A DNA stretch of 64,000 bases from Blastopirellula retiformator (GTDB taxonomy: Bacteria > Planctomycetota > Planctomycetia > Pirellulales > Pirellulaceae): assembly GCF_007859755.1 (NCBI RefSeq), contig NZ_SJPF01000001.1, positions 1,600,082 to 1,664,081 on the forward strand, written 5' to 3'. The position numbers and the translations under genes are program-made. The notes under the pieces are model-generated. The model was not told the DNA's origin, did no database searches, and saw nothing but the letters and a program-made list of their open reading frames with translations. Positions 5,731 to 52,138 of this stretch are shown here, piece by piece (the stretch's first letter is position 1; the number at the start of each line of letters is the position of its first letter).

Positions 5731-5846
5731 TAGCAGTCCGTTGATTTTCTCGATGGCCTGCGTGATCGCAGGGATCCGCGATGAGCTACGCTCTGAGCCT
5801 GGCGAGGTTGAAAAATGCCACGATGGCATTTTTCAACAAGCAGTTA
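5731..5846 (-). repeat. Multi-hairpin element, copy A (internally deleted)
   Basis: Minus-strand copy of the ~155-bp dispersed element described in the findings. The A/T-flanked hairpin (GTTGAAAAATGCC/GGCATTTTTCAAC on the minus strand) and the outer GCAG...CTGC hairpin are present, but the central AAAATAACGAC hairpin and most of the neighbouring GATCGCA hairpin are missing. The TTA at its right edge (5844-5846) is the complement of the stop codon of the alkaline phosphatase gene. Confidence 0.85.
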
Positions 5847-7595
5847 GCGATTCTCGGGGCGAATCAGCAGTTCCGGCTTGTCCAGGAACATGTAGTGCCC
5901 ATGGTCGGCCGTGACGATCAGGACCGACTCGTCCCAGTTGCTGTTCTCTTCGACCCAATCGGTGATCGCCTTGACGGCCGAGTCGCCGCTGTTGACGGCG
6001 CCGATCGACGCATCGAGATTGTTCGAGTGGTTCGCCCAGTCGACGTCCCCCGATTCGACCAGGAGCCAAAAACCCTTGTCGTTCTTCGAGAGGACCTCGA
6101 TCGCCGCCGTGGTCATATCAGCCAGCATCGGGTTTTCTTTCAGGTCGGCTTCGTCGTATTTGATTCCTTTCTTGGCTACCCCCAAAGCCGGGTGATAGTC
6201 CCCTTCGCCCGAGAGAAACGGCAGATGGGCGCCTGCATCGCCGCCGCCGGCAACGCCGAAGAAGCCAAACAGACGCTGTCCCGTCTTGGCCGCTTGGGCC
6301 GCAGCCGACGCGAGAACCTGCCGGCCATCTTCGCCGGGGGTGCGCGTCGCGACGATGTACTTGCCGCCGTTTTCGACGTTCAGCTTTTTCAGGTCTTCGT
6401 CGGCCAGATACTTGTTGCCGGGCACGAAGTTGTCTCCCTGTCCCTTGTCGCTGGTCGTGTTAACGCCATAGCCGGCGCCGATCAAGACATCGAGTCCGCG
6501 GAGCGGCGTCTCTGGGTTGTTTGATGAGGGGAGTCCCAGCAAATCGCGGGTGATGTCCTGATAGTCATTGCGGGAAACGTTGTAGGCGTACGATGCGCCG
6601 GGGGTGGCGTGGCTGATCGGCACGCTAGTGACCGCCCCGGCCAAGTACCCTTGTTCCTGGGCCAGGTGCGCCAGCGTTTTGGGGCGTTCGCCATGCGGGC
6701 CGACGCCGATCGCCGCGTTATAGGTCTTGATGCCTCCCATCATGCTCGTCGCGCTGCTCGCCGAGTCGGTGTAAGCATGTTTGACGCCATCGTCGGTGCT
6801 GGACCGACCGATCAGGTATTCAATATCGGTCGGCATCTGCCATGGAGCGGAACCAGCTTGCGTCACGTCGTAGCCGCCAAACAGTCCACCTCCGGCTGAC
6901 TTGACGATTTGCTTATTAATGTCGACGTTGGCGCCATCGCAGAACGGGCTTGTCACCATCAAGCCGAACTGGGTCGTGCCGTTGGCCTGGTACTCTTGGA
7001 AGTGGGTGCCGACGCCGCGTCCTTCGGTATAAGGGATGCGTTGGGTGTTCCAGATCGCGGCGGCCTGGGTGGTTTGCCAATCCATCCCGTCGAAGACGAC
7101 CAGAAAGATATTCTTCTTGCCTGCATCGAGCGCCGCTTTCTGCAGATCAAAGAGATTGGTTTGATCCAAGTAATCGGCGGCCGGATTGACGGTCGCTTGG
7201 GTCGGCTTGCCGTAGATGCGGCGAAGCTTGTTCTCGCTGCGGTAGGGGCTGTTTTCGCCGGTGTAACTGTTGAGATCGATTCCGTTGGGCTGCCCCTTTG
7301 TCCCGAAGGTATAGACTGGGATCAAGCGATTGGAGTGGGACGTCCAGGAACTGTACTTCTTCGGATCCGGTCCCCAGTGCACGGCGTCGCTATGTCCGGT
7401 GGTAATGCCTTGTTCTTGCAGTTGGTGTAAGTAGTCGCCGCCCATGGCGGTCGAAACGAGCATACCGAGGATGAACGAGAGCAGTACGGCGAGAATCGTG
7501 CGGTCCAATGCGACACCCAGATAGCGGTTAGGGGGAGGACGAAGGTGAGAAGGTAAACTGGAAATTATAGTTACGAAGAGTTTGCCGGAAATCAC
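5844..7595 (-). CDS. Alkaline phosphatase (PhoA superfamily), secreted or membrane-anchored
   Basis: Metal-dependent phosphomonoesterase, probably exported to release phosphate. A hydrophobic segment at about 33-50 (ILAVLLSFILGMLVSTAM) is a signal peptide or anchor. Family landmarks in order: FLVVFDGMDWQ (metal Asp near 168), the nucleophile motif DSASSATSMMGG near 278, VPISHATPGASYAYN, LLVESGDVDWANHSNN near 530 and VTADHGHYMF near 560. The protein stops about 12 residues after the last motif, earlier than E. coli PhoA, which has a further metal-binding His downstream; the His of GHYM might substitute. The stop codon belongs to the edge of a repeat (copy A). The true start is uncertain because the ~30 residues ahead of the hydrophobic segment look unlike a signal peptide. 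Confidence 0.85.
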   Translation of the reverse strand: MISGKLFVTIISSLPSHLRPPPNRYLGVALDRTILAVLLSFILGMLVSTAMGGDYLHQLQEQGITTGHSDAVHWGPDPKKYSSWTSHSNRLIPVYTFGTKGQPNGIDLNSYTGENSPYRSENKLRRIYGKPTQATVNPAADYLDQTNLFDLQKAALDAGKKNIFLVVFDGMDWQTTQAAAIWNTQRIPYTEGRGVGTHFQEYQANGTTQFGLMVTSPFCDGANVDINKQIVKSAGGGLFGGYDVTQAGSAPWQMPTDIEYLIGRSSTDDGVKHAYTDSASSATSMMGGIKTYNAAIGVGPHGERPKTLAHLAQEQGYLAGAVTSVPISHATPGASYAYNVSRNDYQDITRDLLGLPSSNNPETPLRGLDVLIGAGYGVNTTSDKGQGDNFVPGNKYLADEDLKKLNVENGGKYIVATRTPGEDGRQVLASAAAQAAKTGQRLFGFFGVAGGGDAGAHLPFLSGEGDYHPALGVAKKGIKYDEADLKENPMLADMTTAAIEVLSKNDKGFWLLVESGDVDWANHSNNLDASIGAVNSGDSAVKAITDWVEENSNWDESVLIVTADHGHYMFLDKPELLIRPENR

Positions 7596-7873
7596 GCTAC
7601 CGGACGACTCCCGCGAAAAGGCGAAGAAATGTAGTTCATTTTGTGAGGAAATCGTTTGTTATCCCCGGGCGCCGATCGGTTTTGCGCACCACCGTAGTGG
7701 TGGTTCGGCGGCTAGAATATTGCTACGGAAAAAACCGTAGATCTTTCGTCCCCGCCTGCCAGATCGTTGACCGTTCTCGGACATGCCCCTACCATAAGGT
7801 CGTAAACAGTCAACGACTTGCGTCGACTCCTTGATTCGCTGTTGCGCGGCACTTTTCCCCTTTTCGCCCCGAT

Positions 7874-8914
7874 ATGCAGCTCACATGCTTTTATTGTGGT
7901 AACGTCCTGCGAGCCACCGCCGACCAGTTGGGCGGCGAGGTCGTTTGCCCTCACTGTCATAAGGTGGTCCGACTTCCCGAAGCGGAGGCTCTCGCCTCGG
8001 ACCAGCCGCATCAAGAAGGCGCCCTGTTCCACTCTTGGCTCAATGATGGGATCTCGGGGTTCGTCTCCTTCATCATCCATGCCGGGCTGTTGATTCTGTT
8101 CGCCTCGGTTACCTGCAACTTCCAGTCTTCGACGACGGGAGATGGGGTCGACGTGATGATCGGCGACATGCCGGAAGTCAGTCTGGACGACTCCGGCGGT
8201 GAGACGCTTGATACGGTCGCCGCCGCCAGCGAAGTGACCGAAGCGGTCGAGATGGACGAACTGCTGAACGAGGTCGCTCCTCCCAGCGCCGAGCCGACCG
8301 ACATCGGCGAACTAATCGACACGGCGGCCTTGACCCCCAGCGGAGCGATGGGAGGGGGCATCGGTTCGTTGTCGACCGTTGGCGGCGGAGGTAGCGGCGT
8401 TGGCGCCGGCGCCTCGTTCATGGGACTACGCGCGGCAGGTCGACGGTTCTGCATCATCGCCGACTGTTCGGGTTCGATGTCAGGCGCCAAGCTCGACTAT
8501 GTGAAGGAAGAGATTCTGGAAACGGTCGGCAGCTTGCCGCGTGACGCGCAGTTCCAGGTCGTCTTTTTTCAATCGCAGGCCGTTCCGTTTCCGCAAACGG
8601 GATGGCGTCATCCCAAACGAGATTTCAACGCGTTGTCCGAATGGTTGAAGACGGTCGGACCGCAAGGTGGCACCAATCCGGAACCGGCGTTTGAGATCGC
8701 CATGGGGTACTCACAACGGCCCGATGCGATCTTTTTTATGACCGACGGAATGTTTGATGCGAACGTCGTCGATCAAGTCCGACGACTCAACAGTCAGGGA
8801 AATGCGAAGGTCAAGATTCATGCGATCTCCTTCATGGACCGCACGGCCGAACCGCTGATGCGCAAAATCGCCGGTGATTCAGGAGGGGAGTATCGCCATG
8901 TTCAAGCGTTCTAG
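7874..8914 (+). CDS. Zinc-ribbon, single-pass membrane protein with von Willebrand factor A domain
   Basis: First gene of the ExbB/ExbD operon (346 aa). Residues 5-28 form a CxxC...CxxC zinc ribbon (C5, C8, C25, C28), 61-80 is one membrane helix, then a low-complexity acidic/Gly linker (about 85-185) leads to a vWA domain. The metal-ion-dependent adhesion motif DCSGSMSG is intact near 196, with a downstream Thr (GGTNPEPAF) and FFMTDGMFD. The predicted topology is cytoplasmic zinc ribbon and periplasmic vWA domain, which would bind a protein partner through a divalent metal. Its 3' end overlaps the next gene by 17 bp. Partner and ligand are unknown. Confidence 0.88.
   Translation: MQLTCFYCGNVLRATADQLGGEVVCPHCHKVVRLPEAEALASDQPHQEGALFHSWLNDGISGFVSFIIHAGLLILFASVTCNFQSSTTGDGVDVMIGDMPEVSLDDSGGETLDTVAAASEVTEAVEMDELLNEVAPPSAEPTDIGELIDTAALTPSGAMGGGIGSLSTVGGGGSGVGAGASFMGLRAAGRRFCIIADCSGSMSGAKLDYVKEEILETVGSLPRDAQFQVVFFQSQAVPFPQTGWRHPKRDFNALSEWLKTVGPQGGTNPEPAFEIAMGYSQRPDAIFFMTDGMFDANVVDQVRRLNSQGNAKVKIHAISFMDRTAEPLMRKIAGDSGGEYRHVQAF
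8881..8890 (+). promoter_or_regulatory. Strong Shine-Dalgarno inside the vWA gene
   Basis: AGGAGGGGAG lies 7 bases before the ATG at 8898 and inside the end of the vWA gene. It decides the start of the downstream secreted protein in favour of 8898 rather than the upstream in-frame ATG at 8874, because only the 8898 start places a clean signal peptide at the N-terminus. Confidence 0.75.
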
Positions 8915-10022: not shown

Positions 10023-10031
10023 GGAATAACC

Positions 10032-10829: not shown

Positions 10830-10844
10830 CAGGAGGCGATCGCC

Positions 10845-18752: not shown

Positions 18753-18904
18753 TAACTGCCTGTTGAAAAATGCCCTCGTGGCATTTTCCAACCTCGCCAG
18801 GCTCAAAGCATCGCTCTTCGCGGCTCGCAAAATAACGACTTACGTCGCTATTTTGGGATCGCATCCCTGCGATCCAGCAACCCGTTGAGAAAATCAACGG
18901 ACTG

Positions 18905-18907
<3 letters not shown>
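18753..18907 (+). repeat. Multi-hairpin element, copy B (full length)
   Basis: Full 155-bp copy between two convergent genes. In order: GTTGAAAAATGCC...GGCATTTTCCAAC, AGCATCGCT, AAAATAACGAC...GTCGCTATTTT, GATCGCA...TGCGATC, and CAACCCGTTGA...TCAACGGACTG. The final CTA (18905-18907) is the complement of the stop codon of the histidine kinase gene on the minus strand. Confidence 0.9.
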
Positions 18908-21409
<2,502 letters not shown>

Positions 21410-31663: not shown

Positions 31664-31818
31664 TACCTGCCTGTTGAAAATTGCCCTCGTGGCGTTTTCC
31701 AACCTCGCCAGGCTCAGAGCATAGCTCTTCGCGGCTCGCAAAATAACGACTTACGTCGCTATTTTGGGATCGCATCCCTGCGATCCAGCAGCCCGTTGAG
31801 AAAATCAACGGACTGCTA
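31664..31818 (+). repeat. Multi-hairpin element, copy C (full length)
   Basis: Full-length copy between convergent genes (oxidoreductase and lipoprotein). The first hairpin carries substitutions (AAATTGCC...GGCGTTTTCC), while the AAAATAACGAC, GATCGCA and GCAGCCCGTTGA hairpins are nearly intact. Confidence 0.88.
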
Positions 31819-32622: not shown

Positions 32623-32653
32623 TAACTGCCTGTTGAAAAATGCCATCGTGGCA
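32623..32653 (+). repeat. Multi-hairpin element, copy D, left part cut by the IS
   Basis: Carries the TAACTGCCTGTTGAAAAATG start and the left half of the first hairpin. Bases 32641-32653 (TGCCATCGTGGCA) are repeated with one mismatch at 34201-34213, on the other side of the insertion sequence. Confidence 0.88.
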
Positions 32654-34200
32654 ATACCGTTCGGCACGCCATTTGCGCATTCAAATTAATTCCGGTTCGC
32701 CGTGCCACAATGGCAGGGCGAAGCTTGGTTTCAACCTTGAATGCAGTGACATTTTATCGTGCGGAAGTCTTCTAAAAATCGCAAATCGGCGGCCGCGTCT
32801 GCTAGCGCTGGCGACCAACAATCGATTCATGTGCAAGGCCTGAAGTACTTTGCCAAGTTGCGGCCGTTGTTGGCGGAACTTCATGACGAGGGGACAGCTC
32901 GCGATGCCGCTGGCAACCGCACGTTGCACTTCGATCAGTATTGTCTGCTGGTGCTGCTTTACGTTTTGAACCCCGGCATTTCTAGTCTGCGAGCGCTTTC
33001 GCAGGCAAGCGAACTGACCAAGGTTCAGCAGAAACTCGGCAACGAGAAAGCGTCGCTTGGCTCGCTTTCCGAGAGTGCTCGGCTGTTCGATCCGGAGCGA
33101 CTGAAAGCCATTATCGGACTGCTGACCGAGCAGGTTCAAGCCGGAAAACTCGACGCCAAAGCGGCGAAGTTCGCCCAGGGGCTCATCGCCGTTGACGGCA
33201 GCGTGGTGAACGCGTTGCCGTCGATCATGGCCGCGACGCTGTTGAAGCAGACGACCGGTTCGGCCGTTGTGCGTTGGCGACTGCACACGCACTTCGAGGT
33301 CGCCAGTTTCACGCCGCAATCGATCACCGTGACGCCTAACGGCGGCGGCGAAAATGACGAACGAGCGGTGCTGGCGCGTTCGCTGGAGGCGGACAAGATT
33401 TATGCGATGGATCGTGGTTACGCCAAGTTCAAACTGTTCAACGCGATCGATCAGCGCGGCAGCAGCTATCTCTGTCGCCTGCGCGACAACTCGAAGTATG
33501 ACGTGCTCGAAGAACATCCGCTGACCGATGGCGATCGAGCCGCAGGAATCCTCAGCGATCAGACCGTGCTGCTTGGCAAGACGAGCAAGAAGGAAGATCG
33601 TCCCGATCATCTGGTTCGACTTGTCTGCGTGAAGTGCACGCCGCACAAGAATCGAACTGGCGGCAAGGTGAAAGGTTCCAAGGCGCCAAGCAGCGACGGC
33701 GTGCTGCGAATCGCGACGAACATGCCGTTCGCCCCAGCCGAAATCATCGCGATTCTTTATTCATATCGCTGGACGGTCGAAATCTTCTTCCGCTTCTACA
33801 AGCAACTGATGGGTGGCGCGCACCTGATCAGTCACAGCAAAAACGGAATCGAGATTCAGGTTTACTGCGCGATGATCGCCTGCCTGTTGATCCACCTGTG
33901 GATCGGCGGCAAGCCAAGCAAACGGACGTTCGAGATGATCGGTTACTACTTCACCGGCCTGGCCAACGAAGAGGAGATGCTGGCCCACATCGCCAAGATC
34001 CGAAAGCAAGCCGCCGCGACAGCGAAGAAAAAATCGTAGCAGGCAGTAAGGAGTCCGCCGTCGCAGCGGTCTCTCGGTTGATGCTGCGCGGATGGAAAAT
34101 GGAACGGCAGCTTGCACGGTCCAGCAGCGGGGCGAAAATGCGTGAAGAGTTCGCGGCGGGATCAAATCTGTTTATGCCGACTGGGCGTGCCGAACAGTAT
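32654..34200 (+). mobile_element. Complete IS4-family insertion sequence (1,547 bp)
   Basis: The ends form 17-bp inverted repeats with 16 matches (ATACCGTTCGGCACGCC at the left; the complement of GGCGTGCCGAACAGTAT at the right, 34184-34200). A 13-bp target duplication (TGCC[A/C]TCGTGGCA) flanks it, within the length seen for IS4-group elements. It holds one full transposase gene. The target is the loop and stem of the first hairpin of multi-hairpin element copy D. Confidence 0.9.
32759..34039 (+). CDS. IS4-family transposase (DDE)
   Basis: 426 residues, GTG start. The DDE triad is readable: first Asp in LIAVDGSVVNALPS near 145, second Asp in IYAMDRGYAKF near 219, and Glu in the IS4 signature Y-2-R-3-E-6-K (YSYRWTVEIFFRFYK near 338). 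The protein is full length and uninterrupted, so the element may still be active. The C-terminus ends in a basic KKKS tail. Confidence 0.95.
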   Translation: MRKSSKNRKSAAASASAGDQQSIHVQGLKYFAKLRPLLAELHDEGTARDAAGNRTLHFDQYCLLVLLYVLNPGISSLRALSQASELTKVQQKLGNEKASLGSLSESARLFDPERLKAIIGLLTEQVQAGKLDAKAAKFAQGLIAVDGSVVNALPSIMAATLLKQTTGSAVVRWRLHTHFEVASFTPQSITVTPNGGGENDERAVLARSLEADKIYAMDRGYAKFKLFNAIDQRGSSYLCRLRDNSKYDVLEEHPLTDGDRAAGILSDQTVLLGKTSKKEDRPDHLVRLVCVKCTPHKNRTGGKVKGSKAPSSDGVLRIATNMPFAPAEIIAILYSYRWTVEIFFRFYKQLMGGAHLISHSKNGIEIQVYCAMIACLLIHLWIGGKPSKRTFEMIGYYFTGLANEEEMLAHIAKIRKQAAATAKKKS

Positions 34201-34337
34201 TGCCCTCGTGGCATTTTCCAACCTCGCCAGGCTAAGAGCATAGCTCTTCGCGGCTCGCAAAATAACGACTTACGTCGTTATTTTGGGATCGCATCCGTGC
34301 GATCCAGCAGCCCGTTGAGAAAATCAACGGACTGCTA
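34201..34337 (+). repeat. Multi-hairpin element, copy D, right part
   Basis: Continues copy D after the IS: right half of the first hairpin, then the AAGAGCATAGCTCTT, AAAATAACGAC...GTCGTTATTTT (perfect 11-bp stem), GATCGCA...TGCGATC and GCAGCCCGTTGA...TCAACGGACTGC hairpins, ending CTGCTA. Confidence 0.9.
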
Positions 34338-35676
34338 AGAGAGAACGGGGCATAGGATGTGACCGCTGACGGCGCCTGCGATTCGACGTGGTTCCCGGAT
34401 ACGATCGGGCCTGCTCGAATGTGTCGCCATTGGTCACGTTTCTCGCCGCCTGCTTGCTCGATCCCAACGTTCCATACGCACTCCTATTTTCTTCCAAATT
34501 TGCTTGCCAAATTGTCCCGATTTTTGGTATAAAAATGTTCAGGCATGCCGTGGACCTGGTCCATGTGTGTTTCTCCTCTTGAGGAGACTCACCGGTGCGT
34601 GGAGACGCGCTGTGAACTTGCCGTCTGGTCGATGTTTCCCCTGGTTCTGGAAAGGGGCAAGAGTCGATCCAAAATTCGCGCAAGCGGTCCCGTAAAAATT
34701 GCGGAGAACGTACGCGCGGATCGAGCGGCCGTTGGGGCGAATGACTAGCGCCGACGGTCTTGAATTGGAAATGGTCCAGTTTTTCCCAACGTTTCGCACT
34801 TGGTTGCGATGAAGCTACCGGTGCGCGCTGGGCACCGATTTTCGGGTGTACGTAGGCACGAAAAAAAATTCGTCGCGGTCCAGTCCACTTCGTCGCAGGA
34901 AAAAAACGAAACGCGGCGGTCCAGTTTTTCGGGTGCGTCGAGACGCACCGCGAACCTGTGCGTTGGGTCGATTTTTCCCACGCGTGATAACGCAACGGTG
35001 CGCGGCGTTTGCGTTGCCACGCGAGGTTGGTGGTGCGCGATTGAGCAGGGCCCGGTGCGTCCAGACGCACCCTACCCAAGAAAACTTGCGCGAATTGGTC
35101 CAGTTGTTTCGGATCGTAAGAACATGTGTTCCGGGTTGGGTTTAGATCGCCGCGGTGGGGCTTTCGTTTCTAGGGCGGATCGTGATCCAGGACTGCGCCG
35201 CCTGACGGCGACTTCGCCCTGGGCTACGTTAGCGGCACCCTTTGGGGCTGAAGAAAAATCGAAACGTGGCGGTCCAGTTTTTCGGGTGCGACTGGAGGCG
35301 CCGTGAACCTGCGCGGTGTGTTTGCGTTGCCACGCGAGGTTGGTAGTGCGCGGGTTGGGCAGGGCGTGGTGCGTCCAGACGCACCCTACATGAAGAAAAA
35401 AATTCGCGTGCAGTCCGGTCCGGTTGGTTGGGGAAAAACGAACCGGATGGGGCAGGGCGATTCGCGCCTGGTTTTGTACTTGCGGGCGCATTTCCCTCGC
35501 TTGCGCTTCGCGCTACTATTGCTGCGTTTGCGCTGGGTGGGGGAGTTTCGATGCGCGCTTTCAAGAAAAAAGAATGGCCCGGTCCAGTGATTGGATCCGA
35601 GCCGTTTGTTGTTAACGAATTCGTGCTTGATTCGTCATTCGGGCTTCGACATTCGTCATTGACGAGTATCGGCGCG
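34338..35676. repeat. 1.3-kb gene-free repeat field with T-run modules
   Basis: No protein gene is convincing here. Seven minus-strand modules (GGACTGGACC-like core followed within 5-15 nt by a T-run) lie at about 34758-34780, 34860-34887, 34899-34925, 35079-35104, 35252-35278, 35394-35422 and 35565-35588. Between them, three diverged direct copies of a larger unit (from about 34592, 34914 and 35265) contain GGTGCGTC...GACGCACC hairpins. A promoter-like TTGCCA-18-TATAAA lies at 34504-34533 on the plus strand. Confidence 0.6.
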
Positions 35677-37468: not shown

Positions 37469-38122
37469 TTACTCGGCCGTTGGCGTGACGCCCGAGCGTT
37501 TCAGGTGCTCGTTGTAGAGTCGTTTGTCGGTCAACACCATGATCTTGCCGGTCTTGTCGTCATAGCCATACATTTCGTAGCTGCGGAGCTTCGCAAACTT
37601 GACGTTATTTTCCTTCATGATCTGCATGTATTCTTCATAAGTGGGCCAACGACCTTCGACCGCCTTCTTCATCTGAACGGCTTGTTGCATGCCGAGCGTG
37701 CTGACGCGAGCCATCGCCGAGAAGTAGGCGGAACCGGCCTGGCTGAACGGATCGACCCCGGCGGCCGACGAACCTTCGGCGACGACGATTTCCGGATCTT
37801 GCAGCGCCTTGTGAACGTCGACCACTTTGGCGGTCGTCTTGCCGATCACGCCGCGCGGTTCGGGCTTGGTTTCGGCAGGCGGCGTCGCGGTTTCGGTCGC
37901 AGGGGCCGGGGTTTCGGTCGCAGGGGCCGGGGTTTCGGTCGCAGGGGCCGGGGTCATCGCCGGACCGGTTGGAGTCGCGCCAGCGCCGACGGCGGCCGAC
38001 GAACCTTCCAGCGGCGCTACGCCGCCGGGAGCGACGGGGCCGGAAGTGCGCTGGCCGATCGGTTCGGTATCGCAGCCAACAAGAAACGCAAGAAAACCAA
38101 CGATCAGGGCGATACGCGACAT
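37469..38122 (-). CDS. Putative lipoprotein with TPAPATE tandem repeats
   Basis: 217 residues. Signal sequence MSRIALIVGFLAFLVGC ends in a lipobox (FLVGC), so it should be lipid-anchored. Residues about 55-80 hold PAPATET repeats coded by three perfect 21-bp DNA repeats (37890-37952). The C-terminal domain (about 115-217) has helices AYFSAMARVSTLGMQQAVQM and YEEYMQIMKENNVKFAKL and then YDDKTGKIMVLTDKRLY. No family recognised; the repeat is a probable flexible linker away from the membrane. Confidence 0.75.
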   Translation of the reverse strand: MSRIALIVGFLAFLVGCDTEPIGQRTSGPVAPGGVAPLEGSSAAVGAGATPTGPAMTPAPATETPAPATETPAPATETATPPAETKPEPRGVIGKTTAKVVDVHKALQDPEIVVAEGSSAAGVDPFSQAGSAYFSAMARVSTLGMQQAVQMKKAVEGRWPTYEEYMQIMKENNVKFAKLRSYEMYGYDDKTGKIMVLTDKRLYNEHLKRSGVTPTAE

Positions 38123-38307
38123 GGGAGAAGATCCTTTGAAAGAAGAGCGGGGACGAAAATTGACCCGTCAGGCTGCAATATCGATCATTTGGCCGCCAAA
38201 TTCAAGCGCCGTCCGGGTGTTGTTAGGTGGCCACGACCTTGTTCCCTTTGTGGGTAAGGGATAAATTTAATACTTACGCAGTTCCGCCCCGCAGAGACGA
38301 AACCACC

Positions 38308-38655
38308 ATGAAACTGGTCATCGCCATCATTCAGCCGAGCCGCCTGGAAGCGGTTAAAGAAGCGCTTACCGAAGTCGAAGTCTTTCGGCTCACGGTGATG
38401 GATTGTCAGGGCTTTGGTCGCCAGAAGGGACAGACCGAAGTTTATCGCGGTCACGAGTTCACTATCAATCTGCTGCGCAAAGTTCAGCTGCAAATCGCGG
38501 TGAACGAGGAGTTTGTCGAACCGACCGTCGACGCGATCGTCAAAGGCGCCCGAAGCGGCGAAAAGGGAGAGATCGGCGACGGCAAGATCTTTGTTTTGCC
38601 AATGGACGAATGCGTGCGGATTCGAACCGGCGAACGTGGCCCCGACGCGATCTAA
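38308..38655 (+). CDS. PII family nitrogen regulatory protein (GlnB/GlnK type)
   Basis: 115 residues from the ATG at 38308, with the typical start MKLVIAIIQPSRLEAVKEAL. PII hallmarks: GFGRQKGQTEVYRG in the T-loop (with the Tyr used for uridylylation in proteobacteria), and IGDGKIFVLPMDECVRIRTG near the C-terminus. The segment ARSGEKGEIGDG has three more residues than the usual ARTGKIGDG. PII trimers sense ATP/ADP and 2-oxoglutarate and control nitrogen enzymes and ammonium transport. No amtB or glnA is next to it. Confidence 0.9.
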   Translation: MKLVIAIIQPSRLEAVKEALTEVEVFRLTVMDCQGFGRQKGQTEVYRGHEFTINLLRKVQLQIAVNEEFVEPTVDAIVKGARSGEKGEIGDGKIFVLPMDECVRIRTGERGPDAI

Positions 38656-38659
38656 GGCG

Positions 38660-38735
38660 GCGAGCCGCGAAGAGCGATGCTCTGAGCCTGGCGAGGTTGA
38701 AAAATGCCACGATGGCATTTTTCAACAGGCAGTTA
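38660..38735 (-). repeat. Multi-hairpin element, copy E (half copy)
   Basis: Contains only the first (A/T-flanked) and second hairpins, lying between the convergent PII and thioredoxin genes. The last three bases (TTA, 38733-38735) are the complement of the thioredoxin gene's stop codon. Confidence 0.88.
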
Positions 38736-39368
38736 GCCTTTGCTTAGTTCGAGTTCGACCGCATCGCGAAAGACATCCATGTCGTAGGCGCCAATCCAAA
38801 CGCGCTGCACGACGCCGTTGCGATCGACGAGAATCGTGGTCGGATAAGCGAGAAACGGGCCGACTGAGTTGAGTTCGGTGCGAGACGCTCCGGCGGCGTC
38901 GGCGTAGACCGGCAAGCCGATGATGTTGATCTTTTCGAGGATGTCGGCCGAATCGCCAGCCAGCTCGGTCATGTTTTCGCGGCCGTCGATGGCGTCGCGA
39001 GAGCAACTGACCGGTAGGAATTGAAACGCGGTTTCGTTTTTCAGGTCACGGCTGAGCCGGACCAAGCCGGGGAGTTCGGCCAAACAAGGTGGGCACCAGG
39101 GGCCCCAGAAGTTGATCAGGCTGACCTTGCCTTGCAGGTTGGCAGTGGTGATCGGTTGGTCGGTGTTGAGCAGCGGGGCGAAGTCGACCTGCGTCAGTGG
39201 GTGGCCGACCCAAGGATGCGACTGTTGCTGCGGCGGCTGCATGGCCCGGATGACCAGAATCACGCAAAGCCCGACCAGCACGGCGAACAGGATGGCGGTT
39301 ACGGCCGAGCTAATCCATTTTTCGCCAGATCGCTCGGGGCCGAGAGAATGCTGATCGGAATCGTTCAT
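38733..39368 (-). CDS. TlpA/ResA-like membrane-anchored thioredoxin
   Basis: 211 residues. One membrane helix near 20-42 (AVTAILFAVLVGLCVILVI) anchors a periplasmic thioredoxin fold with active-site WCPPC in FWGPWCPPCLAELPGL near 92 and the cis-Pro in YPTTILVDRNG near 178. Such proteins reduce or form disulfides for cytochrome c or membrane enzymes. The gene is single and convergent with the PII gene. Confidence 0.92.
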   Translation of the reverse strand: MNDSDQHSLGPERSGEKWISSAVTAILFAVLVGLCVILVIRAMQPPQQQSHPWVGHPLTQVDFAPLLNTDQPITTANLQGKVSLINFWGPWCPPCLAELPGLVRLSRDLKNETAFQFLPVSCSRDAIDGRENMTELAGDSADILEKINIIGLPVYADAAGASRTELNSVGPFLAYPTTILVDRNGVVQRVWIGAYDMDVFRDAVELELSKG

Positions 39369-39735
39369 GGTGGGCGTCGCCAGTGTGGAATTCGGAGCAG
39401 GGAAGGGGACAGGCGGTCGACCCTATTTTATCCGAAGCGATGGAGCGTGGCGGCAACTTCTTTCGTTTTGCTGGGAAAGCCTTGAGCGGCGAAGCGGCCC
39501 GAGACGGGGAGGAGCAGGCGCCGATCGGGTTAAAAGGAGGTGAATCTGACGCTTCAGAGGCCGTCGATGGGCGCCCTGGCAATTAGAATCGAACCAGGAA
39601 ATCGCTCTTGCGTTGGCGGACAACTCGCGGAAAATTTGCTAAGTTTGGAAGAATCCTCCTAGGGCGACGATCCAGGGAATCGACAATCCAAGGAATGCTG
39701 TCGGCCATTTCTATCTCCCGCCTTTGCGTACGAAT
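39369..39735. other. Intergenic stretch between divergent genes
   Basis: 367 bp between the thioredoxin and CYTH starts. A perfect ribosome site AAAGGAGGTGA (39534-39544) is followed by an open frame of about 31 codons from an ATG near 39568, ending TCC-TCC-TAG. It may be a leader peptide or chance. Nothing else was recognised. Confidence 0.3.
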
Positions 39736-40284
39736 ATGAAGTTCGAAGTCGAATTGAAGTTTCCGGTCGATGATCTCCGCCGCGTCGAAGCGGCGCTCTC
39801 TAGCTTGGGCGCCGAAATCGAGATCCCAGTGAAACAGTCCGATTATTACTATGGGCATCCGTCGCGCGACTTCGCCGAAACGGACGAGGCGCTCCGGATC
39901 CGCAAGGTCGGCAGTAAGAACATCATCACCTACAAAGGGCCCAAGATCGACTCGACGACCAAGACCCGTCGCGAGATCGAAGTGCCGCTGGTTTCGGGAT
40001 CGGAAGGCGCCGCCAACATCGTCGAAATGCTGGAGTCGCTCGGCTTTTCGCTGGTCGCCGAAGTGACCAAGAACCGCCGCAAAGCGAATCTGCAGTTCGC
40101 TGATCAAGAGGTGGAGGTCGCCCTGGACGAGGTGAAGAACCTGGGCCAGTTTGTCGAGCTGGAAATCTCGGCGGAAGAGGCGGATATCGACGCCGCTCGG
40201 ACCGCGATTAACGAGTTGGCCGCCAAGTTGGGCCTGTCGGGCAGCGAACGCCGCAGCTACCTGGAATTGATCCTGGAAGGCTAA
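39736..40284 (+). CDS. CYTH domain protein (CyaB/thiamine-triphosphatase type)
   Basis: 182 residues from the ATG at 39736 (an in-frame TTG at 39724 is less likely). The CYTH signature ExExK appears at once as FEVELKF, followed by the barrel strands EALRIRKVGSKNIITYKGPK and VALDEVKNLGQFVELEI. Enzymes of this tunnel fold act on triphosphates: class IV adenylate cyclases and triphosphatases cannot be told apart here. The stop TAA is the first three bases of multi-hairpin element copy F. Confidence 0.9.
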   Translation: MKFEVELKFPVDDLRRVEAALSSLGAEIEIPVKQSDYYYGHPSRDFAETDEALRIRKVGSKNIITYKGPKIDSTTKTRREIEVPLVSGSEGAANIVEMLESLGFSLVAEVTKNRRKANLQFADQEVEVALDEVKNLGQFVELEISAEEADIDAARTAINELAAKLGLSGSERRSYLELILEG

Positions 40285-40436
40285 CTGCCTGTTGAAAAAT
40301 ACCATCGTGGCATTTTTCAACCTCGCCAGGCTCAGAGCATCGCTCTTCGCGGCTCGCCAAATAACGACTTAAGTCGTTATTTGGGGATCGCATCCGTGCG
40401 ATCACGCAGTCCGTCGAGAAAATCAACGGACTGCTC
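40282..40436 (+). repeat. Multi-hairpin element, copy F (full length)
   Basis: Starts with the TAA stop codon of the CYTH gene. All five hairpins are present; the AAATAACGAC/GTCGTTATTT stem of the third is retained although its middle reads TTAA rather than TTAC. The terminal trinucleotide is CTC instead of CTA. Confidence 0.9.
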
Positions 40437-40751
40437 GAGCTGCCTTCCCCCCCGAGGCGGCGGATTGGGGCGTTTCGAGACCGCTTCTCAAAAAAATTCG
40501 ACCCACGGCGAAACCCTGAACTGCAACCGGGGTTCATCTATTTTCGAAACGGCAAATGCGTCGTTTTCGTCTCTCTACGAGATACGAATCAGGCGAACTT
40601 GCGCCTGTTGGAAACTTTGGGGAGCCCTGGGTCGTCAATACCGCGCAGATGGCCTGGGGCTCCTTTTTTGTTTCGATGAATTCTGGGCGTAACTGGCCAA
40701 GACGCCGGGCGATCGCCACCCAGCAGCGGCCGAGTTTCCTATACTACAGGT
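40437..40751. other. Intergenic stretch with candidate structured RNA
   Basis: No protein gene is convincing. From about 40550 on the plus strand three hairpins follow one another: TCGTCTC/GAGATACGA, CAGGCG-AACTTG-CGCCTG, and GGAGCCC...GGGCTCC followed by six T residues (40621-40669). This is a plausible small RNA ending in a terminator just before the MFS gene. Confidence 0.4.
40621..40669 (+). terminator. Intrinsic terminator candidate
   Basis: GGAGCCC (40621-40627) pairs with GGGCTCC (40657-40663), directly followed by T6. The loop of about 29 nt is long but contains further pairing (GGCC/TGG words). Confidence 0.45.
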
Positions 40752-42092
40752 ATGTCTTCTGTAGCCGCTCAGCAGCCAAACTCTTCCTCCGATTCTCCCA
40801 CTTCGACGCTTCCTACCGAACCGGATGAAGGGGCGGAAACTCGCAACTTCTTTTTGTTGGCGTTCTCGCAGGTGGTGCTTCGTTGCGGCTGGATCTTCAA
40901 GACCGAGAGCATCATCATCCCGGCCGTGCTCGACTTGATCGCTGGGCCAGGTTGGGTTCGCGGGCTGCTGCCGATCTTGAACCGCATCGGGCAATCGCTG
41001 CCGCCGCTGTTTTATGCGCGCACGCTGAAGTCGATGTCGCAGAAGAAGTGGTCGCTGTGCGGTACGACGCTGGCCATGGGAGTCTGCTTCTCTTTGCTGG
41101 CATTTTGTTTCGTGCCGCCGATTCGAGATGCGGTGGATGGTTGGTTTCCGGAGAGCACCACTTGGCCGAGCGTCTGGCTGACGGTCGCGTTCTTGGTCTG
41201 CTACTTCCTCTTCTTCGCGGCGACGGGGCTGAATCAGGTTGGCTTCGGCACGGTGCAGGGGAAGCTGGTTCGCGTGACCAAACGGGGGCGCTTGATGCTG
41301 GTCGCCAACTTTGCCGGAGCGATCGCGGCGATCGGCTTGGCCGCGTGGCTGTTGCCAAAGTGGCTGACCAATCATGACGCGCACGTGCACTGGATCTTTG
41401 GCTTCGCTGGCGGTGCGTTTCTGCTGAGCGCCGGCGTTTCGGCCTTGCTGAAAGAGCACTGCGACAAGGCGCCGCACGTGAAGGGAACGGCCGCCGAGTT
41501 ATTTCATGACGCGTTCAGCGTGTTGACCGAAGATCGCAACTTCCGCCGTTTAGCGGTGGTGGCGTTTTGCTTCGGCTGCTCGCTGATGCTGTTCCCGCAC
41601 TATCAGGCGCTGGCCCGCGATCGACTGGGGGCGCCGCTCGAGAACTTGATCTTCTGGGTGATCATTCAGAACGGCGGCACGGCGGCGTTTAGCCTGCTAG
41701 GAGGGCCGCTGGCCGATTGGAAAGGGAATCGCCTGGTGCTGCGGCTGATGATGTTCGGCGTCTTCTTGATGCCGCTGATCGCCATTGTGCTGATCCATAC
41801 AGGGCCAAGCGACGCGACGCTGTTCAACTGGCTTTTCCTGCTGGTCGGCGTAACGCCGGTGATGTTCCGCGGGCTTAGCAACTACGTGCTAGAGATCTCC
41901 CCCCGCAGCGAACATCCGCGGTACCTGGCCGCCCTCAGCTTGTGCGTGGCGGCGCCGATGGTTGCATCGCCGGCGGTTGGCTGGGCGCTCGACGCGGTGT
42001 CGTACGAGGCGGTCTTTCTAACGGTGTCGGCCATCTTGTTCGGCGGGTTGCTGATGACCTGGACGATCGCCGAGCCGCGTCAAAGCGTTTAG
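40752..42092 (+). CDS. Major facilitator superfamily transporter
   Basis: 446 residues with about 12 membrane helices after a hydrophilic ~30-residue N-terminus. The first cytoplasmic loop (FYARTLKSMSQKKWSLCGTT) and the loop between helices 8 and 9 (LGGPLADWKGNRLVL) show the MFS-type G-x-LaDrxG-R pattern. The lumen-exposed C-half ends in a helix with GGLLMTWTIAEP. The substrate is unknown. The gene stands alone and converges with the phosphoesterase gene. Confidence 0.85.
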   Translation: MSSVAAQQPNSSSDSPTSTLPTEPDEGAETRNFFLLAFSQVVLRCGWIFKTESIIIPAVLDLIAGPGWVRGLLPILNRIGQSLPPLFYARTLKSMSQKKWSLCGTTLAMGVCFSLLAFCFVPPIRDAVDGWFPESTTWPSVWLTVAFLVCYFLFFAATGLNQVGFGTVQGKLVRVTKRGRLMLVANFAGAIAAIGLAAWLLPKWLTNHDAHVHWIFGFAGGAFLLSAGVSALLKEHCDKAPHVKGTAAELFHDAFSVLTEDRNFRRLAVVAFCFGCSLMLFPHYQALARDRLGAPLENLIFWVIIQNGGTAAFSLLGGPLADWKGNRLVLRLMMFGVFLMPLIAIVLIHTGPSDATLFNWLFLLVGVTPVMFRGLSNYVLEISPRSEHPRYLAALSLCVAAPMVASPAVGWALDAVSYEAVFLTVSAILFGGLLMTWTIAEPRQSV

Positions 42093-42134
42093 AGCGTTTT
42101 TCTGATAGCAGTAGCGTTTCTGGCGTTAGTGAGG

Positions 42135-42254
42135 CAACCTCGCCAGGCTCAGAGCATAGCTCTTCGCGGCTCGCAAAATAACGACTTACGTCGTTAATTT
42201 TGGGATCGCATCCGTGCGATCACGCAGTCCGTCGAGAAAATCAACGGACTGCTA
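42135..42254 (+). repeat. Multi-hairpin element, copy G (first hairpin lost)
   Basis: Starts at the AACCTCGCCAGG part, so the terminator-like first hairpin is missing. Hairpins 2-5 follow, with one extra T in the third (GTCGTTAATTTTG). The last CTA (42252-42254) is the complement of the phosphoesterase gene's stop codon. It lies between convergent genes. Confidence 0.88.
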
Positions 42255-43316
42255 GACCTTCGCCAGCTTCAGCGAGAACTGGTTCTGCGGCGAGGCGTTC
42301 ACTTGGTTGCGGGTCGGCGAGTAGTCGACGACGTTGACCGAGCCATCAGTGGTGAACTCCAAGAGTCGCAGCCAGGCGTCTCCGCCGTTGGGCTTCATCT
42401 GAAAGTTGACCAGCATCTGGTGAACGTCGCGACCGCCAGGGGTGGTCGACGTCATCCGGGCCAGGCCATCGTTGAGCACATGGCCATTGACCGTCAGGAT
42501 GAAGTTCTCGTGCTTGCTGACCAGATTGTTCCAGAGTTCGGTTCCGTCCATCACGTCGCCGCCGCTGATCTTGGCGACTTGATAGCTGTGCGGGTTCCAG
42601 GTTTGTTTGGTTTGCTTCTCAGCCCAGTCATAACGGGTCTCGTCGAAGTACATATAGGCGTGCGTGATCAAAATCGCTTCGCGATCTTTGTGCTTGGCGG
42701 CAATCTCGTTGGCCCAACGCACGACATCGCGCCGCGGACCGAACTCGAGCCCGATCACCACAAAGTCGCGCCCCCCGGCCGAGAAGAGATGGTAGCTGTT
42801 CTCCATCTGCCGCGGCTCTTTGTCGTAGACGCCCCCGAACGTCGGCAGCGGGCGGAACTTGTCGATCGGGAAGTAGTCGTTTAGCGACGTCGAACGATCG
42901 TGGCACTTGCCGCCGCTGCTGTAGTCATGATTGCCGGGGACCAGGAAGTAGGGGATCTTGCCGTCGAGCTGGGCCAAGGCCGAAGCGGCCAATTGCCACT
43001 GCTCGGCGGTATTTCGGTTGGTGATGTCGCCCAGGTGCAGGGCGGCGGCGATGTTGCGAGATTTCTTGTTTTCCGCCAGCCACTTAGTCTGCTGCAGGAA
43101 CCCCTCGGGATGCCCTTCGCCATACATCTGCGTGTCAGGCAAGACGGCGACGGTGAACGAGCCTTTGCCAATCGGAGCCGGTTCCCCCTCGACGAACTTG
43201 GCGTCGGCATACGGATCGGCCGCGAGCGATTGCGAGCCAGCAAGCGAAATGAACGAAGATCCGACGGCGAGCGAAGCGCCGGTCTTGAGCAACTGGCGGC
43301 GATCAAGCGAGGTCAT
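42252..43316 (-). CDS. Exported calcineurin-like metallophosphoesterase
   Basis: 354 residues from the ATG at 43316, which begins a Tat-like signal (MTSLDRRQLLKTGASLAVGS) with a cleavable SLAA end. The metallophosphoesterase motifs appear in order: VAVLPDTQMYGEG, LHLGDITNRN, PGNHDYSSGG, ILITHAYMYFDET and VNGHVLNDG, giving the usual two-metal ligand set. It probably cleaves phosphate esters or nucleotides outside the cytoplasm. An upstream ATG (43343) adds nine residues and is less likely. Confidence 0.9.
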   Translation of the reverse strand: MTSLDRRQLLKTGASLAVGSSFISLAGSQSLAADPYADAKFVEGEPAPIGKGSFTVAVLPDTQMYGEGHPEGFLQQTKWLAENKKSRNIAAALHLGDITNRNTAEQWQLAASALAQLDGKIPYFLVPGNHDYSSGGKCHDRSTSLNDYFPIDKFRPLPTFGGVYDKEPRQMENSYHLFSAGGRDFVVIGLEFGPRRDVVRWANEIAAKHKDREAILITHAYMYFDETRYDWAEKQTKQTWNPHSYQVAKISGGDVMDGTELWNNLVSKHENFILTVNGHVLNDGLARMTSTTPGGRDVHQMLVNFQMKPNGGDAWLRLLEFTTDGSVNVVDYSPTRNQVNASPQNQFSLKLAKV

Positions 43317-43414
43317 GACAGATTCCTGGCGGGGGAATTTCATCTAGTGGAATCGTAATTATCGCCCGGAGGCTAGGGCGTGTAAACCTATGAGCGGCTC
43401 GCTTTTGTCTTAAC

Positions 43415-47884: not shown

Positions 47885-48023
47885 GGCCGGGCTCCTTGTT
47901 GGAAGGCATCGAGACGTTGAACATCTTCAAATGCTAACCCACATTGAGCCCCGGCTTCCTATATCTTCATGCTCTCGCGAAGACGCGATAAGACCATGGC
48001 GCCAGCAGGTTCCGCTTTTCTTT

Positions 48024-49788: not shown

Positions 49789-50787
49789 ATGGCCCGCGAA
49801 GCTTTATTACAGCCTGGAGACGGCTCTGGTCGCGACGAAGACCGGATGCTCCGTCCGCAGTCGATGGCCGACATGGTCGGTCAGCGCGAAGTCGCCAAGC
49901 GGCTGCAGATCGTTGTCGATGCGGCGATGAAGCGGGACGAGCCGCTGGGGCACATCTTGTTCGATGGTCCGCCTGGTCTGGGCAAAACGACCTTTGCGAC
50001 CTGCATTCCCAAAGACCTGGGGGTCAATTTTCAACTGACCAGCGGTCCCGCGATTCAGGCGCCCAAAGACCTGGTTCCGTACCTGACCAACGCCGATGAA
50101 CGATCGGTGTTGTTCATTGACGAAATCCACCGGATTCCCAAAGCGGTCGAAGAGTATCTCTACACCGCGATGGAAGACTTCCGGATCGACATCGTGCTGG
50201 GCGAAGGAACCAACGCCCGGACGATCAACCTGCAGATCAAACCGTTTACCTTGATCGGCGCCACGACCCGCAGCGGGATGCTCTCGGCGCCGCTCCGCGA
50301 TCGGTTTGTCTTGCGGGAGCATCTCGACTTCTACACCGACGAAGAACTGGCCGAGATCCTCGGCCGCAACGCCAAGAAGCTGGGCGTGACGATCGACGAC
50401 GAGGCTTCGCTCGAAATCTCCAAACGCAGTCGCAGCACTCCCCGCGTCGCCAACAATCGCTTGCGTTGGGTTCGCGACTTTGCGACCAGCCGCGCCGACG
50501 GGCATGTCACGCTCCAACTGGCCCGTGAGGCGATGGAGATGCAGGCAATCGACGACCTGGGGCTCGACAAGCAAGACCGCAACTATCTCTCGACCCTCGT
50601 CCGCGTCTTCGGCGGCGGCCCAGCCGGCATCGAAGCGATCGCCCACACCATGAACGCGGCGCATGACACGCTGGCCGACGAAGTCGAACCGTTCCTCCTG
50701 CGAACCGAACTGGTCGTCCGCACCCCGCGCGGCCGCGTGGTCACGCCCAAGGCGATGGACCACCTGAAGGCGATTAAGTGGAAGTGA
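49789..50787 (+). CDS. ruvB: Holliday junction branch migration ATPase RuvB
   Basis: 332 residues from the ATG at 49789, the usual RuvB start region ([20 protein letters not shown]); a longer frame from 49723 adds unrelated residues. Walker [10 protein letters not shown] near 62, Walker [10 protein letters not shown], sensor [17 protein letters not shown], and the winged helix end ([19 protein letters not shown]). It pumps DNA through Holliday junctions with RuvA and RuvC, neither of which is adjacent here. Confidence 0.97.
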
Positions 50788-51983
50788 GCCTAAAGCGGAA
50801 CCGCGTGCCGCGGCTCTGCGAGCCGTGGCCTCGAACGGCGAGTCTCGGTCGAAAAACTGGATCGGTATTCGCGCATTTTTTCTACTCAGCCCCGAAGGGG
50901 CGCCGCTAAAGTAGCACGGGGTGGAGTCGCCGCCAGGCGACGCAGCCCCGGGATAGATTCGCCATTCCACCCCCAAGCCCCAAGGGGGCGATCTAAGCGG
51001 ATTCAGATCGGACCGACCGGACCGGACGATTCTGTTTTTTCAGAGGCAGAGTGGACTGCCTTGCGCGTTTTTTTATTGCCCGTGCTGCTCGACGCCGCTT
51101 GGCAATTTAGGCAGTCTACTCGCCCGACCGGACCGGACGATTTCGTTTTTTCGGCGATGACTAGTCGACCTCGTTTGGCAATCTAGGCAATTCGCTGGCC
51201 TAACTGGACTGGACCAATCAATTCCAATTTTTTGAACCGTCAGGCGGTTCGGTTAGCGCGCCCCTTCAGGGATTTCCGTGCTAAATGCCGCTCGTAACCA
51301 GGGTTACGTCGCTGGGGCGACTCCATCCCGGGCTACTTTAGGTCGCCCCGTTGGGGCTGACGGCGACTGGACTGGACGATTTCGTTTTTTTAACCGCCCG
51401 AAGTGGACTGGACCGCTGGCGACTTTTTTTCTACGCCGCGATCTGTCGCCGATCGAACCGCGACGCATCCTTTGCCATTTATTGGTGGACTGGACCGCGA
51501 CGTTTTTTTCGCGCCGCGCCAGTTGCTAGGGAACCGAGCTTATTTCACTTTGCATCCGAATTTTCAAAGAACCGCTTGCGACGTATCAAGCGCGCGAAAG
51601 CGCCGCGAAGCAAAATCAAACGCACCCCGGAATCGACCACAAATCCGTGCGCTTTGTCAAGCAAAAGAAGGAGAGGCGAAAAGCCGCTTCCGATTGATCT
51701 TGCCGCCGGCGCGGTGGAACCGCAGATTCGCGCAGATGCAGCTGGTGACGGCGTAATCAAACATCGATCGCCGCAAGCAAACTTCTGAGGCCCGGAGGGC
51801 CGTTCCAATCTAGCCTGGGGCGAAGTCGCGCCAGGCGACGTAGCCCCCCAAGTCAAGTTGCCGGTCGAATCGTTGTCGTTGTACGCGACCGCGCGTTTCC
51901 GTGGATCGCCCCCGCTGGGGCTTTCGGCGGTTATTGACGTTAATACCCAGGGCTGCATCGCCGTTGGCGATGCAGCCCTGGGC
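50788..51983. repeat. 1.2-kb gene-free repeat field downstream of ruvB
   Basis: No protein gene is convincing. Six plus-strand modules, each a doubled GGACYGGAC-like core and then a T-run (6-7 T), lie at about 51015-51040, 51125-51151, 51204-51234, 51366-51391, 51403-51429 and 51486-51509. GC-rich palindromes (GCCCCGAAGGGGC near 50884, GGCCCGGAGGGCC near 51790, GGGCTGCATCGCC...GGCGATGCAGCCC at 51949-51979) flank them. A stem GCCGCGGCT/AGCCGTGGC (50807-50829) without T-run lies just after ruvB. Confidence 0.6.
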
Positions 51984-52138
51984 TAGCAGTCCGTTGATTT
52001 TCTCGACGGACTGCGTGATCGCAGGGATGCGATCCCAAAATAGCGACGTAAGTCGTTATTTTGCGAGCCGCGAAGAGCTACGCTCTGAGCCTGGCGAGGT
52101 TGGAAAATGCCACGATGGCATTTTTCAACAGGCAGCTA
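51984..52138 (-). repeat. Multi-hairpin element, copy H (full length)
   Basis: Minus-strand full-length copy between convergent ruvB and purD. The TAGCAGTCCGTTGATTTTCT start, the GATCGCA and AAAATAGCGAC...GTCGTTATTTT hairpins and the GTTGGAAAATGCC...GGCATTTTTCAAC end are all present. Confidence 0.9.

What the first reader, a model, noticed from the sequence alone, without database searches (positions are those of the whole stretch)
5731..52138. A ~155-bp element of five tandem hairpins at eight loci, apparently a repeated transcription-stop cassette
Seen: eight loci (5731-5846, 18753-18907, 31664-31818, 32623-32653 plus 34201-34337, 38660-38735, 40282-40436, 42135-42254, 51984-52138) share one layout: hairpin 1 AAAAATGCCATCGTGGCATTTTT, hairpin 2 AGAGCATCGCTCT, hairpin 3 AAAATAACGAC...GTCGTTATTTT, hairpin 4 GATCGCA...TGCGATC, hairpin 5 GCAGCCCGTTGA...TCAACGGACTGC. 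Copies differ at scattered sites, yet most stems still pair (hairpin 4 loops change, stems do not). Hairpin 1 has A5/T5 flanks, the shape of a bidirectional intrinsic terminator. Five copies lie between convergent genes, two directly behind a gene. Partial copies lose whole hairpins (A loses 3 and most of 4, E keeps 1-2, G loses 1), so it may be modular. Inference: a dispersed terminator or REP-like element spread in this genome.
Basis: partly seen in the sequence, partly recalled or inferred. Interest (0 to 1): 0.8.

Follow-up and report, generated by a model that had tools for sequence, protein, structure and literature searches.

The report
Mobile five-hairpin element in Planctomycetes
The repeat is a small jumping DNA element, with hundreds of copies in this genome and relatives in its order, whose body is kept folded mainly on one strand and carries a hairpin that matches the binding site of the RNA regulator CsrA, so it may be a mobile regulatory RNA and not merely a stop signal.

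Summary
In detail: eight window copies of a 149-bp, five-hairpin unit, with 308 core matches in the genome. It is a non-autonomous transposon (MITE), not primarily a terminator cassette. Its ends (CTGCCTGTTGA; CAGYCYGTTGA in relatives) are flanked by duplicated YTAR (identical in 68 of 97 copies). The same ends and target occur on IS1182/IS5-type insertion sequences of relatives, and a relic of one sits in this genome. The body is unrelated to those ISs. It recurs in 52 of 296 genomes of the order, with two-sided changes at 23 of 55 base pairs. Hairpin 4 there is C[ANGGAU]G, the high-affinity CsrA/RsmE hexaloop: its free N is the most variable of 149 positions, and GGA is in that loop in 47 of 51 folds across lineages. 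CsrA occurs in 67 of 68 genomes searched. CsrA binding and any role in mobility are inferred. 42 of 97 copies sit exactly on a gene's stop codon. An IS4-family IS targets hairpin 1.

The parts
5734..5843 (-). copy A, 110 bp, hairpin 3 and the adjoining arm of hairpin 4 deleted; duplication CTAA; left duplication holds the stop codon of the gene ending at 5844
18756..18904 (+). copy B, full length 149 bp; duplication CTAA/CTAA; right duplication holds the stop of the gene 18905-21409 (-)
31667..31815 (+). copy C, full length; flanks TTAC/CTAC
32626..34334 (+). copy D, full length but split by an insertion sequence; duplication CTAA/CTAA
32654..34200 (+). IS4-family insertion sequence, 1,547 bp, ends ATACCGTTCGGCACGCC, inserted in hairpin 1 of copy D with a 13-bp target duplication (12 of 13 identical)
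32759..34039 (+). its DDE transposase, 426 aa (NF033592, E 3.6e-64)
38660..38732 (-). copy E, left end with hairpins 1-2 only; left flank CTAA holds the stop of the gene 38733-39368 (-)
40285..40433 (+). copy F, full length; flanks CTAA/CTCG; stop of the gene ending at 40284 (+) lies in the left flank
42135..42251 (+). copy G, left end and hairpin 1 lost; right flank CTAG holds the stop of the gene 42252-43343 (-)
51987..52135 (-). copy H, full length; duplication CTAG/CTAG

Best explanation
A MITE moved in trans by IS1182/IS5-type transposases that recognise CAGYCYGTTGA ends and insert at YTAR. Inferred: mobilisation by those transposases; that the folded form is an RNA; that it carries a CsrA/Rsm-type site (hairpin 4, C[ANGGAU]G; in distant lineages also other loops); and that the copies that multiply are those whose RNA still folds and can bind CsrA, so that the RNA takes part in the element's own spread, either as a decoy that relieves CsrA repression or as a tether, since a CsrA dimer can hold two RNAs. 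Copies that have landed decay freely and have no shown host function. My probability for the CsrA step is about 0.45; the stated confidence is for the MITE with a selected single-strand fold.
For: Target duplication 47 of 62 against 13.5 shuffled and 68 of 97. 59 of 67 copies with both ends exactly 149 bp. Same ends and identical YTAR flanks on the ISs L226, L227, L228, L229, L230, L232, and on three of four further G059 copies, the fourth having TTAA/TTAG; right end of the relic L068. Only the ends are shared: model R1 finds nothing in nine IS loci at E up to 1. 52 of 296 order genomes. Covariation: 131 two-sided cells against 38.6 +- 6.2, 0 of 500 shuffles; slid controls 10-25. Sense strand more stable in 35 of 35 and in 55 of 55 own copies. 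Stem cells on the sense strand: 100 G-U, 23 A-C of 1,640. Pair states carried by at least five of 83 own copies: 54 Watson-Crick, 4 G-U, 0 A-C, while rare mutations are unbiased, 19 G-U, 24 A-C, 29 other. Hairpin-4 loop ANGGAT in 87 of the 96 own copies read. GGA in H4 loops 47 of 51, against 6 of 271 antisense loops and 106 of 908 loops of control intergenic DNA. Consensus ANGGAX hexaloop on a stem: PMC4005645 and PMC7652899, passages. CsrA in 67 of 68 genomes, 13 matches in the own genome.
Against: No promoter for the sense RNA is known and no RNA data exist. DNA energy parameters also favour the sense strand (3 of 3 copies tested), so the energies do not separate RNA from ssDNA. The strand preference weakens far out: sense more stable in 12 of 17 further copies and 3 of 4 tRNA-array forms and in 3 of 4 outside the order. 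Counted as distinct pair-and-type cases G-U against A-C is 28 to 20, not significant; per lineage 48 to 21. Hairpin 1 has GGA in only 11 of 51 folds. One genome with the element, G490, gave no CsrA match. CsrA is nearly universal here, so its presence discriminates little. In the own genome the one long transposase copy has a 412-aa frame (most long relatives 485-510) and no recognised left end, and the second match is a fragment.
Confidence: 0.8

Rival explanations
1. A bidirectional transcription terminator cassette that benefits the host: hairpin 1 stops convergent transcripts, and copies are kept because they insulate genes.
For: Excess between convergent genes and few between divergent ones: 21, 39 and 7 of 67 copies convergent, tandem and divergent, with gap lengths 42.5, 143.6 and 73.1 kb. 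A5/T5 flanks of hairpin 1.
Against: Insertion at stop codons explains much of the position (42 of 97). No clear orientation at stop codons (18 against 25). Rare mutations in stems show no pairing bias. No scan hit inside copies E, F, G.
Confidence: 0.1
2. The folded strand acts as single-stranded DNA in transposition or replication (as attC sites or IS200-type ends do, recalled), not as RNA.
For: Strand-specific fold with G-T wobbles and tandem G-A mismatches fits ssDNA as well; DNA parameters favour the same strand in 3 of 3 copies. Selection appears to act on copies that multiply.
Against: DDE-type ends with a 4-bp duplication suggest double-stranded cut and paste. No leading-strand bias on contig C1, whose skew is mostly positive (34 against 33 copies). 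The ANGGAU loop has an RNA reading.
Confidence: 0.2
3. A REP/BIME repeat spread by a RAYT (Y1) transposase.
For: 21 Y1_Tnp matches in the genome; palindromic, extragenic, a target for another IS.
Against: True 4-bp target duplication and inverted repeats shared with IS1182-type ISs. A complete copy lies in 4 of 20 Y1 loci of about 3.3 kb, and single end-like matches in 3 more; about 3 complete or partial copies are expected from 308 in 6.2 Mb.
Confidence: 0.03
4. Stems are kept by templated correction of imperfect palindromes during replication, without selection.
For: Such correction yields paired changes in inverted repeats (recalled, not tested).
Against: It should leave perfect pairs of no preferred polarity; here G-U is kept on one strand, and GGA is kept in an unpaired loop.
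Confidence: 0.07

Closest known systems
Bacterial MITEs (RUP, NEMIS, ERIC, YPAL, Nezha; listed in PMC3733652, passage read)
   Same: No coding capacity, 70-300 bp, terminal inverted repeats, near genes; partner IS with the same ends
   Different: Body is a five-hairpin unit of near-constant length, conserved with covariation over many families of an order, with one favoured strand and a CsrA-type loop
IS1182/IS5-type insertion sequences (NCBIfam NF033551, NF033581)
   Same: Ends CAGCCYGTTGA, YTAR duplication
   Different: They carry the transposase and none of the hairpin body
Csr/Rsm RNAs (CsrB, RsmY, RsmZ)
   Same: Hairpins with A(N)GGA loops directly on stems (PMC4005645, PMC7652899, PMC4383904, passages)
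   Different: Those have many GGA motifs and are ordinary genes (recalled); this is mobile, usually has one GGA loop (two to four in 14 of 55 sequences), no known promoter
REP elements as IS targets (PMC1525189, abstract read)
   Same: A palindromic repeat is the preferred target of an IS
   Different: Here the target is hairpin 1 of a MITE and the IS is of the IS4 family
SINEs parasitising LINEs (recalled)
   Same: A structured body that borrows another element's machinery
   Different: DNA-transposon ends and target duplication, no sign of reverse transcription

Membership tests
MITE | terminal inverted repeats | tested here: met
   CTGCCTGTTGA / TCAACGGACTG in own copies, CAGYCYGTTGA in relatives
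MITE | target site duplication | tested here: met
   47 of 62 identical against 13.5 shuffled; 68 of 97
MITE | no coding capacity | tested here: inconclusive
   no frame conserved between lineages when read by eye in the sequences; no separate coding test was run
MITE | autonomous partner with the same ends | tested here: met
   IS loci L226-L230, L232 in relatives; relic L068 in the own genome, left end not found
MITE | mobilisation by the partner | not testable with these tools
   needs a transposition assay
IS1182 family (partner transposase) | NCBIfam curated cut-off | tested here: not met
   relic scores 163.4 against 270 for IS1182 and 94.4 against 140 for IS5_4; longer relatives were not scored because one search failed. 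Hence 'IS1182/IS5-type', not filed as a member
REP/BIME | RAYT association, no target duplication | tested here: not met
Csr/Rsm RNA | A(N)GGA in hairpin loops | tested here: met
   GGA in H4 loop 47 of 51, H1 11, H5 3, H3 2, H2 1 of 51
Csr/Rsm RNA | several GGA loops per RNA | tested here: inconclusive
   0, 1, 2, 3, 4 GGA loops in 3, 38, 9, 4, 1 of 55 sequences
Csr/Rsm RNA | binds and sequesters CsrA | not testable with these tools
   needs binding assays
Intrinsic terminator | G+C-rich stem followed by a T run | tested here: not met
   8 sites in 38000-43000 (5.9 expected), none inside copies E, F, G; other copies not scanned
Known Rfam family | match to a covariance model | tested here: not met
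   window: 0 matches at gathering scores. L034, L217-L220, L223 at E up to 5: at the element only two chance-level matches (fiv_FSE, E 4.4, 18.8 bits against 53) in copies of L220

The most novel reading that the evidence does not exclude
A transposable Csr/Rsm-type RNA: a non-autonomous element that spreads on IS1182-type ends, whose body is a CsrA-binding RNA conserved across this planctomycete order and beyond. It amplifies through that RNA (by titrating CsrA or by tethering transposase mRNA through CsrA dimers), has reached about 300 copies here, and was fixed as a single-copy structured RNA between tRNA genes in one related genus.
Probability: 0.35. Interest if true: 0.92.

Novelty: new variant of a known kind. 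Interest (0 to 1): 0.75.

Why it matters
MITEs are usually seen as shrunken insertion sequences with nothing inside worth conserving. This one keeps a near-constant length and a strand-biased structure through wholesale sequence change, and the common polymorphisms suggest that the structure matters for multiplying, not for staying. If hairpin 4 binds CsrA, it would be the first case I know of (recalled; the searches listed none) of a mobile element built around a Csr-type RNA, and a handle on the function of the many CsrA paralogues of Planctomycetes. It also corrects how these intergenic hairpins should be annotated.

Tried and rejected
Partner search by family in the own genome: PF01609 gave 23 matches, first dismissed because my end patterns missed the relic; PF13586 and PF13546 gave none, PF05598 two. 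The relic was then recognised from its right end. RAYT association: not enriched. Replication-strand bias on C1: none. A conserved peptide: one sense frame is open in own copies but not in other lineages (read by eye, no test). Plasmid collection: no match. An exact empty site for copy H in Blastopirellula marina DSM 3645: the region after purD differs too much. CsrA number against element abundance: no visible relation (by eye). GGA hairpins in the leader of the IS: scattered matches, no clear conserved hairpin. DNA energy parameters as a way to tell RNA from ssDNA: they favour the same strand.

Alignment A1 had window copies and L016 shifted by one to three bases; A2 and A3 use corrected coordinates. 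The structure counted was read from one of its own sequences (L034), which by itself favours it over the slid controls. The notebook says 36 of 36; the correct count is 35 of 35.
Full report
WHAT IS THERE. The eight loci are real. The complete unit is 149 bp between duplicated flanks; copies A, E and G are partial, and D is complete but split by an insertion sequence. Genome-wide, the 15-mer core with up to one mismatch occurs 153 times forward and 155 times reverse in 6,196,617 bases, 0 times read backwards. In the stretch of contig C1 that I held (1,664,081 positions including 81 N), 83 copies were found, 67 with both ends, 59 of these exactly 149 bp. The genus is probably Blastopirellula: the PurD protein of the window is 92% identical to that of B. 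marina DSM 3645.

IT IS A TRANSPOSON-LIKE UNIT. In 62 distinct copies (window, C1:1-800000 and loci L001-L030, the last chosen for high identity), 47 have identical 4-base flanks: CTAG 17, CTAA 14, TTAG 8, CTAT 4, CTAC 2, ATAA 1, TTAA 1; shuffling gives 13.5 on average and 26 at most in 10,000. In 97 copies with both ends and called neighbours (67 on C1, 30 on C2) it is 68. Copies lacking an end were left out of both counts. Families PF01609, PF13586, PF05598, PF13546 and PF01797 were searched in the genome. One PF01609/PF05598 gene, locus L068 (C1:770 kb), is followed by TCAACGGGCTG and CTAG, the right end of the repeat; its left end was not found. Matches to its protein occur in 13 of 60 genomes, the own included and several weak or fragmentary. 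The six copies measured (L226, L227, L228, L229, L230, L232; L232 is only 1,069 bp) all start CAGCCYGTTGA, end TCAACGGGCKG and have identical YTAR flanks; of four further copies of G059, three have identical flanks and one has TTAA/TTAG. These ISs share about 10-22 end bases with the repeat, and the covariance model of the repeat finds nothing in nine such loci. So the repeat is a MITE on IS1182/IS5-type ends with a body of its own. The transposase relic stays below the NCBIfam cut-offs for IS1182 and IS5, hence 'type'.

WHERE IT LANDS. In 42 of 97 copies the last three bases of a flank are the stop codon of a called gene, 18 on the hairpin-5 side and 25 on the hairpin-1 side, one copy on both; 8 of the 97 overlap a called gene. 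Among copies with identical flanks it is 32 of 68, against 489 of 2,415 (20%) for YTAR sites that are stops or intergenic (binomial p 8.5e-7). Target preference and survival of harmless insertions cannot be told apart here. Of 54 tandem copies, the sense strand is antisense to both neighbours in 36 and co-directional in 18 (p 0.02). Gene calls come from my own hexamer-based caller.

THE FOLD IS CONSERVED, MAINLY ON ONE STRAND. A DNA search of 60 relatives found the element in 10 (own genome included, one marginal), and model R1 in 52 of 296 genomes of the order; of 392 genomes drawn from the phylum 8 matched at E up to 1e-5, three of them outside the order (in the two large surveys only 7-10 candidates per genome were scored). 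Length stays near 149 (143-153 in 31 copies), with a 119-base form in one family. On a 30-sequence alignment, 89.8% of cells pair, 23 of 55 pairs have two-sided changes, and two-sided cells are 131 against 38.6 +- 6.2 in shuffles; slid controls give 10-25 (the structure was read from one of the sequences). One lineage of G037 has exchanged the GTTGA of both ends for GGGGA together with its stem partners. DNA parameters give the same sign in the 3 copies tested. On that strand stem cells are 1,372 Watson-Crick, 100 G-U and 23 A-C of 1,640. Hairpin 2 holds a tandem G-A mismatch, 22 and 23 of 30 sequences at its two positions, replaced by standard pairs in G037a and G045 among others. Counted per lineage it is 48 G-U to 21 A-C; as distinct pair-and-type cases 28 to 20, not significant.

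WHO IS UNDER SELECTION. In 83 own copies of 149 bp, the stem positions with a minor allele above 8% (19, 24, 57, 117, 139, in four pairs) switch between Watson-Crick and G-U on the sense strand; pair states carried by at least five copies are 54 Watson-Crick, 4 G-U and no A-C. Rare mutations (bases seen once or twice) in Watson-Crick stem pairs give 19 G-U, 24 A-C and 29 other. The variants that have multiplied keep the fold; the mutations of resident copies show no such bias. This argues for a role in multiplication and against a host function at each site. It is an inference from one genome and few common variants.

A CsrA-TYPE SITE. Hairpin 4 on the sense strand is, in the own consensus, a perfect stem with C[ANGGAU]G. 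In own copies 87 of 96 loops read are ANGGAT, with N = G 37, C 36, T 13, A 1. Position N has the highest minor-allele frequency of the element (0.58), its neighbours at most 0.024. Over 55 sequences of all lineages, 51 fold into exactly five hairpins; GGA is in the H4 loop of 47 of 51, in H1 of 11, H5 of 3, H3 of 2 and H2 of 1; antisense loops have it in 6 of 271, loops of 149-base control intergenic stretches in 106 of 908. The published high-affinity CsrA/RsmE site is an ANGGAX hexaloop directly on a stem with a looped-out variable N (PMC4005645, passages), and the SELEX consensus is RUACARGGAUGU (PMC7652899, passages). CsrA is found in 67 of 68 genomes searched, with 13 matches in the own genome; since nearly all genomes have it, this only shows that the partner is available.

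A SINGLE-COPY FORM. In four genomes of a related genus (L217, L218, L219, L223) the model finds one copy, without the ends, between a tRNA-Asp(GTC) gene and a tRNA-Val(TAC) gene (called Cys in L217) of a large tRNA array. Stems differ between the four with pairing largely kept, and all four have an ANGGAT loop. At least four other genomes of that genus (G067, G098, G130, G181) gave no match.

AN IS THAT TARGETS IT. The IS in copy D (TIR ATAC[CT]GTTCGGCACGCC, transposase NF033592) is found at seven places in what I saw. In five it sits between two copies of the 13-base hairpin-1 core of this MITE (L062, L064, L065, L072, C1:650.5 kb; 12 of 13 identical in L062), in one only one flank is the MITE (L071), in one the target is another GGGGACGGG repeat (L063). 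REPs as IS targets are known (PMC1525189, abstract).

KNOWN OR NEW. No Rfam 15 family matches beyond chance. Full-text searches of the open library listed no paper whose title or abstract start describes this element or a CsrA-binding MITE; PMC3733652 reports GTAG-tagged REPs in Planctomycetes or their superphylum (passages), a different kind of repeat. Subscription papers are not covered.

Noticed in passing
window 32654-34200; L062, L064, L065, L072: An IS4-family IS (1,547 bp) inserts at the hairpin-1 core TGCC(A/C)TCGTGGCA of this MITE with a 13-bp duplication in five of seven places seen; one further copy has one MITE flank.
   Followed up: partly
own genome C1: about 203450, 439670, 959195, 1215480 and 686328: Mini-derivatives: 27-bp (one of them about 26-bp) units of two ends around a 4-5-base loop (YTAR flanks seen at three of the four; the left flank at 203450 was not read), and a 43-44-bp palindrome made of two left ends with CTAG flanks, probably deletion or template-switch products.
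   Followed up: partly
own genome C1:131811, 152407, 248679: Three copies lacking hairpin 3 share the same breakpoint between TCGCA repeats: a subfamily that spread after the deletion, or recurrent slippage.
   Followed up: no
L217, L218, L219, L223: Single-copy structured homologue between tRNA genes of a large tRNA array, without transposon ends.
   Followed up: partly
own genome: 13 CsrA-family matches in one genome and 3-14 in most of the other 67 searched: an unusual number of paralogues.
   Followed up: no
L220: The 119-base form of the element occurs in tandem pairs in G297.
   Followed up: no
window 34901-35352; C1:845.9-846.4 kb: Another repeat type with AAAAA-rich units followed by GGTCCAGT motifs.
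   Followed up: no
L051-L060: A second IS of about 1,260 bp (transposase about 406 aa, end CACGGCGATTGCGCCA) in ten loci, with a 10-bp duplication visible in L053 and L054.
   Followed up: no
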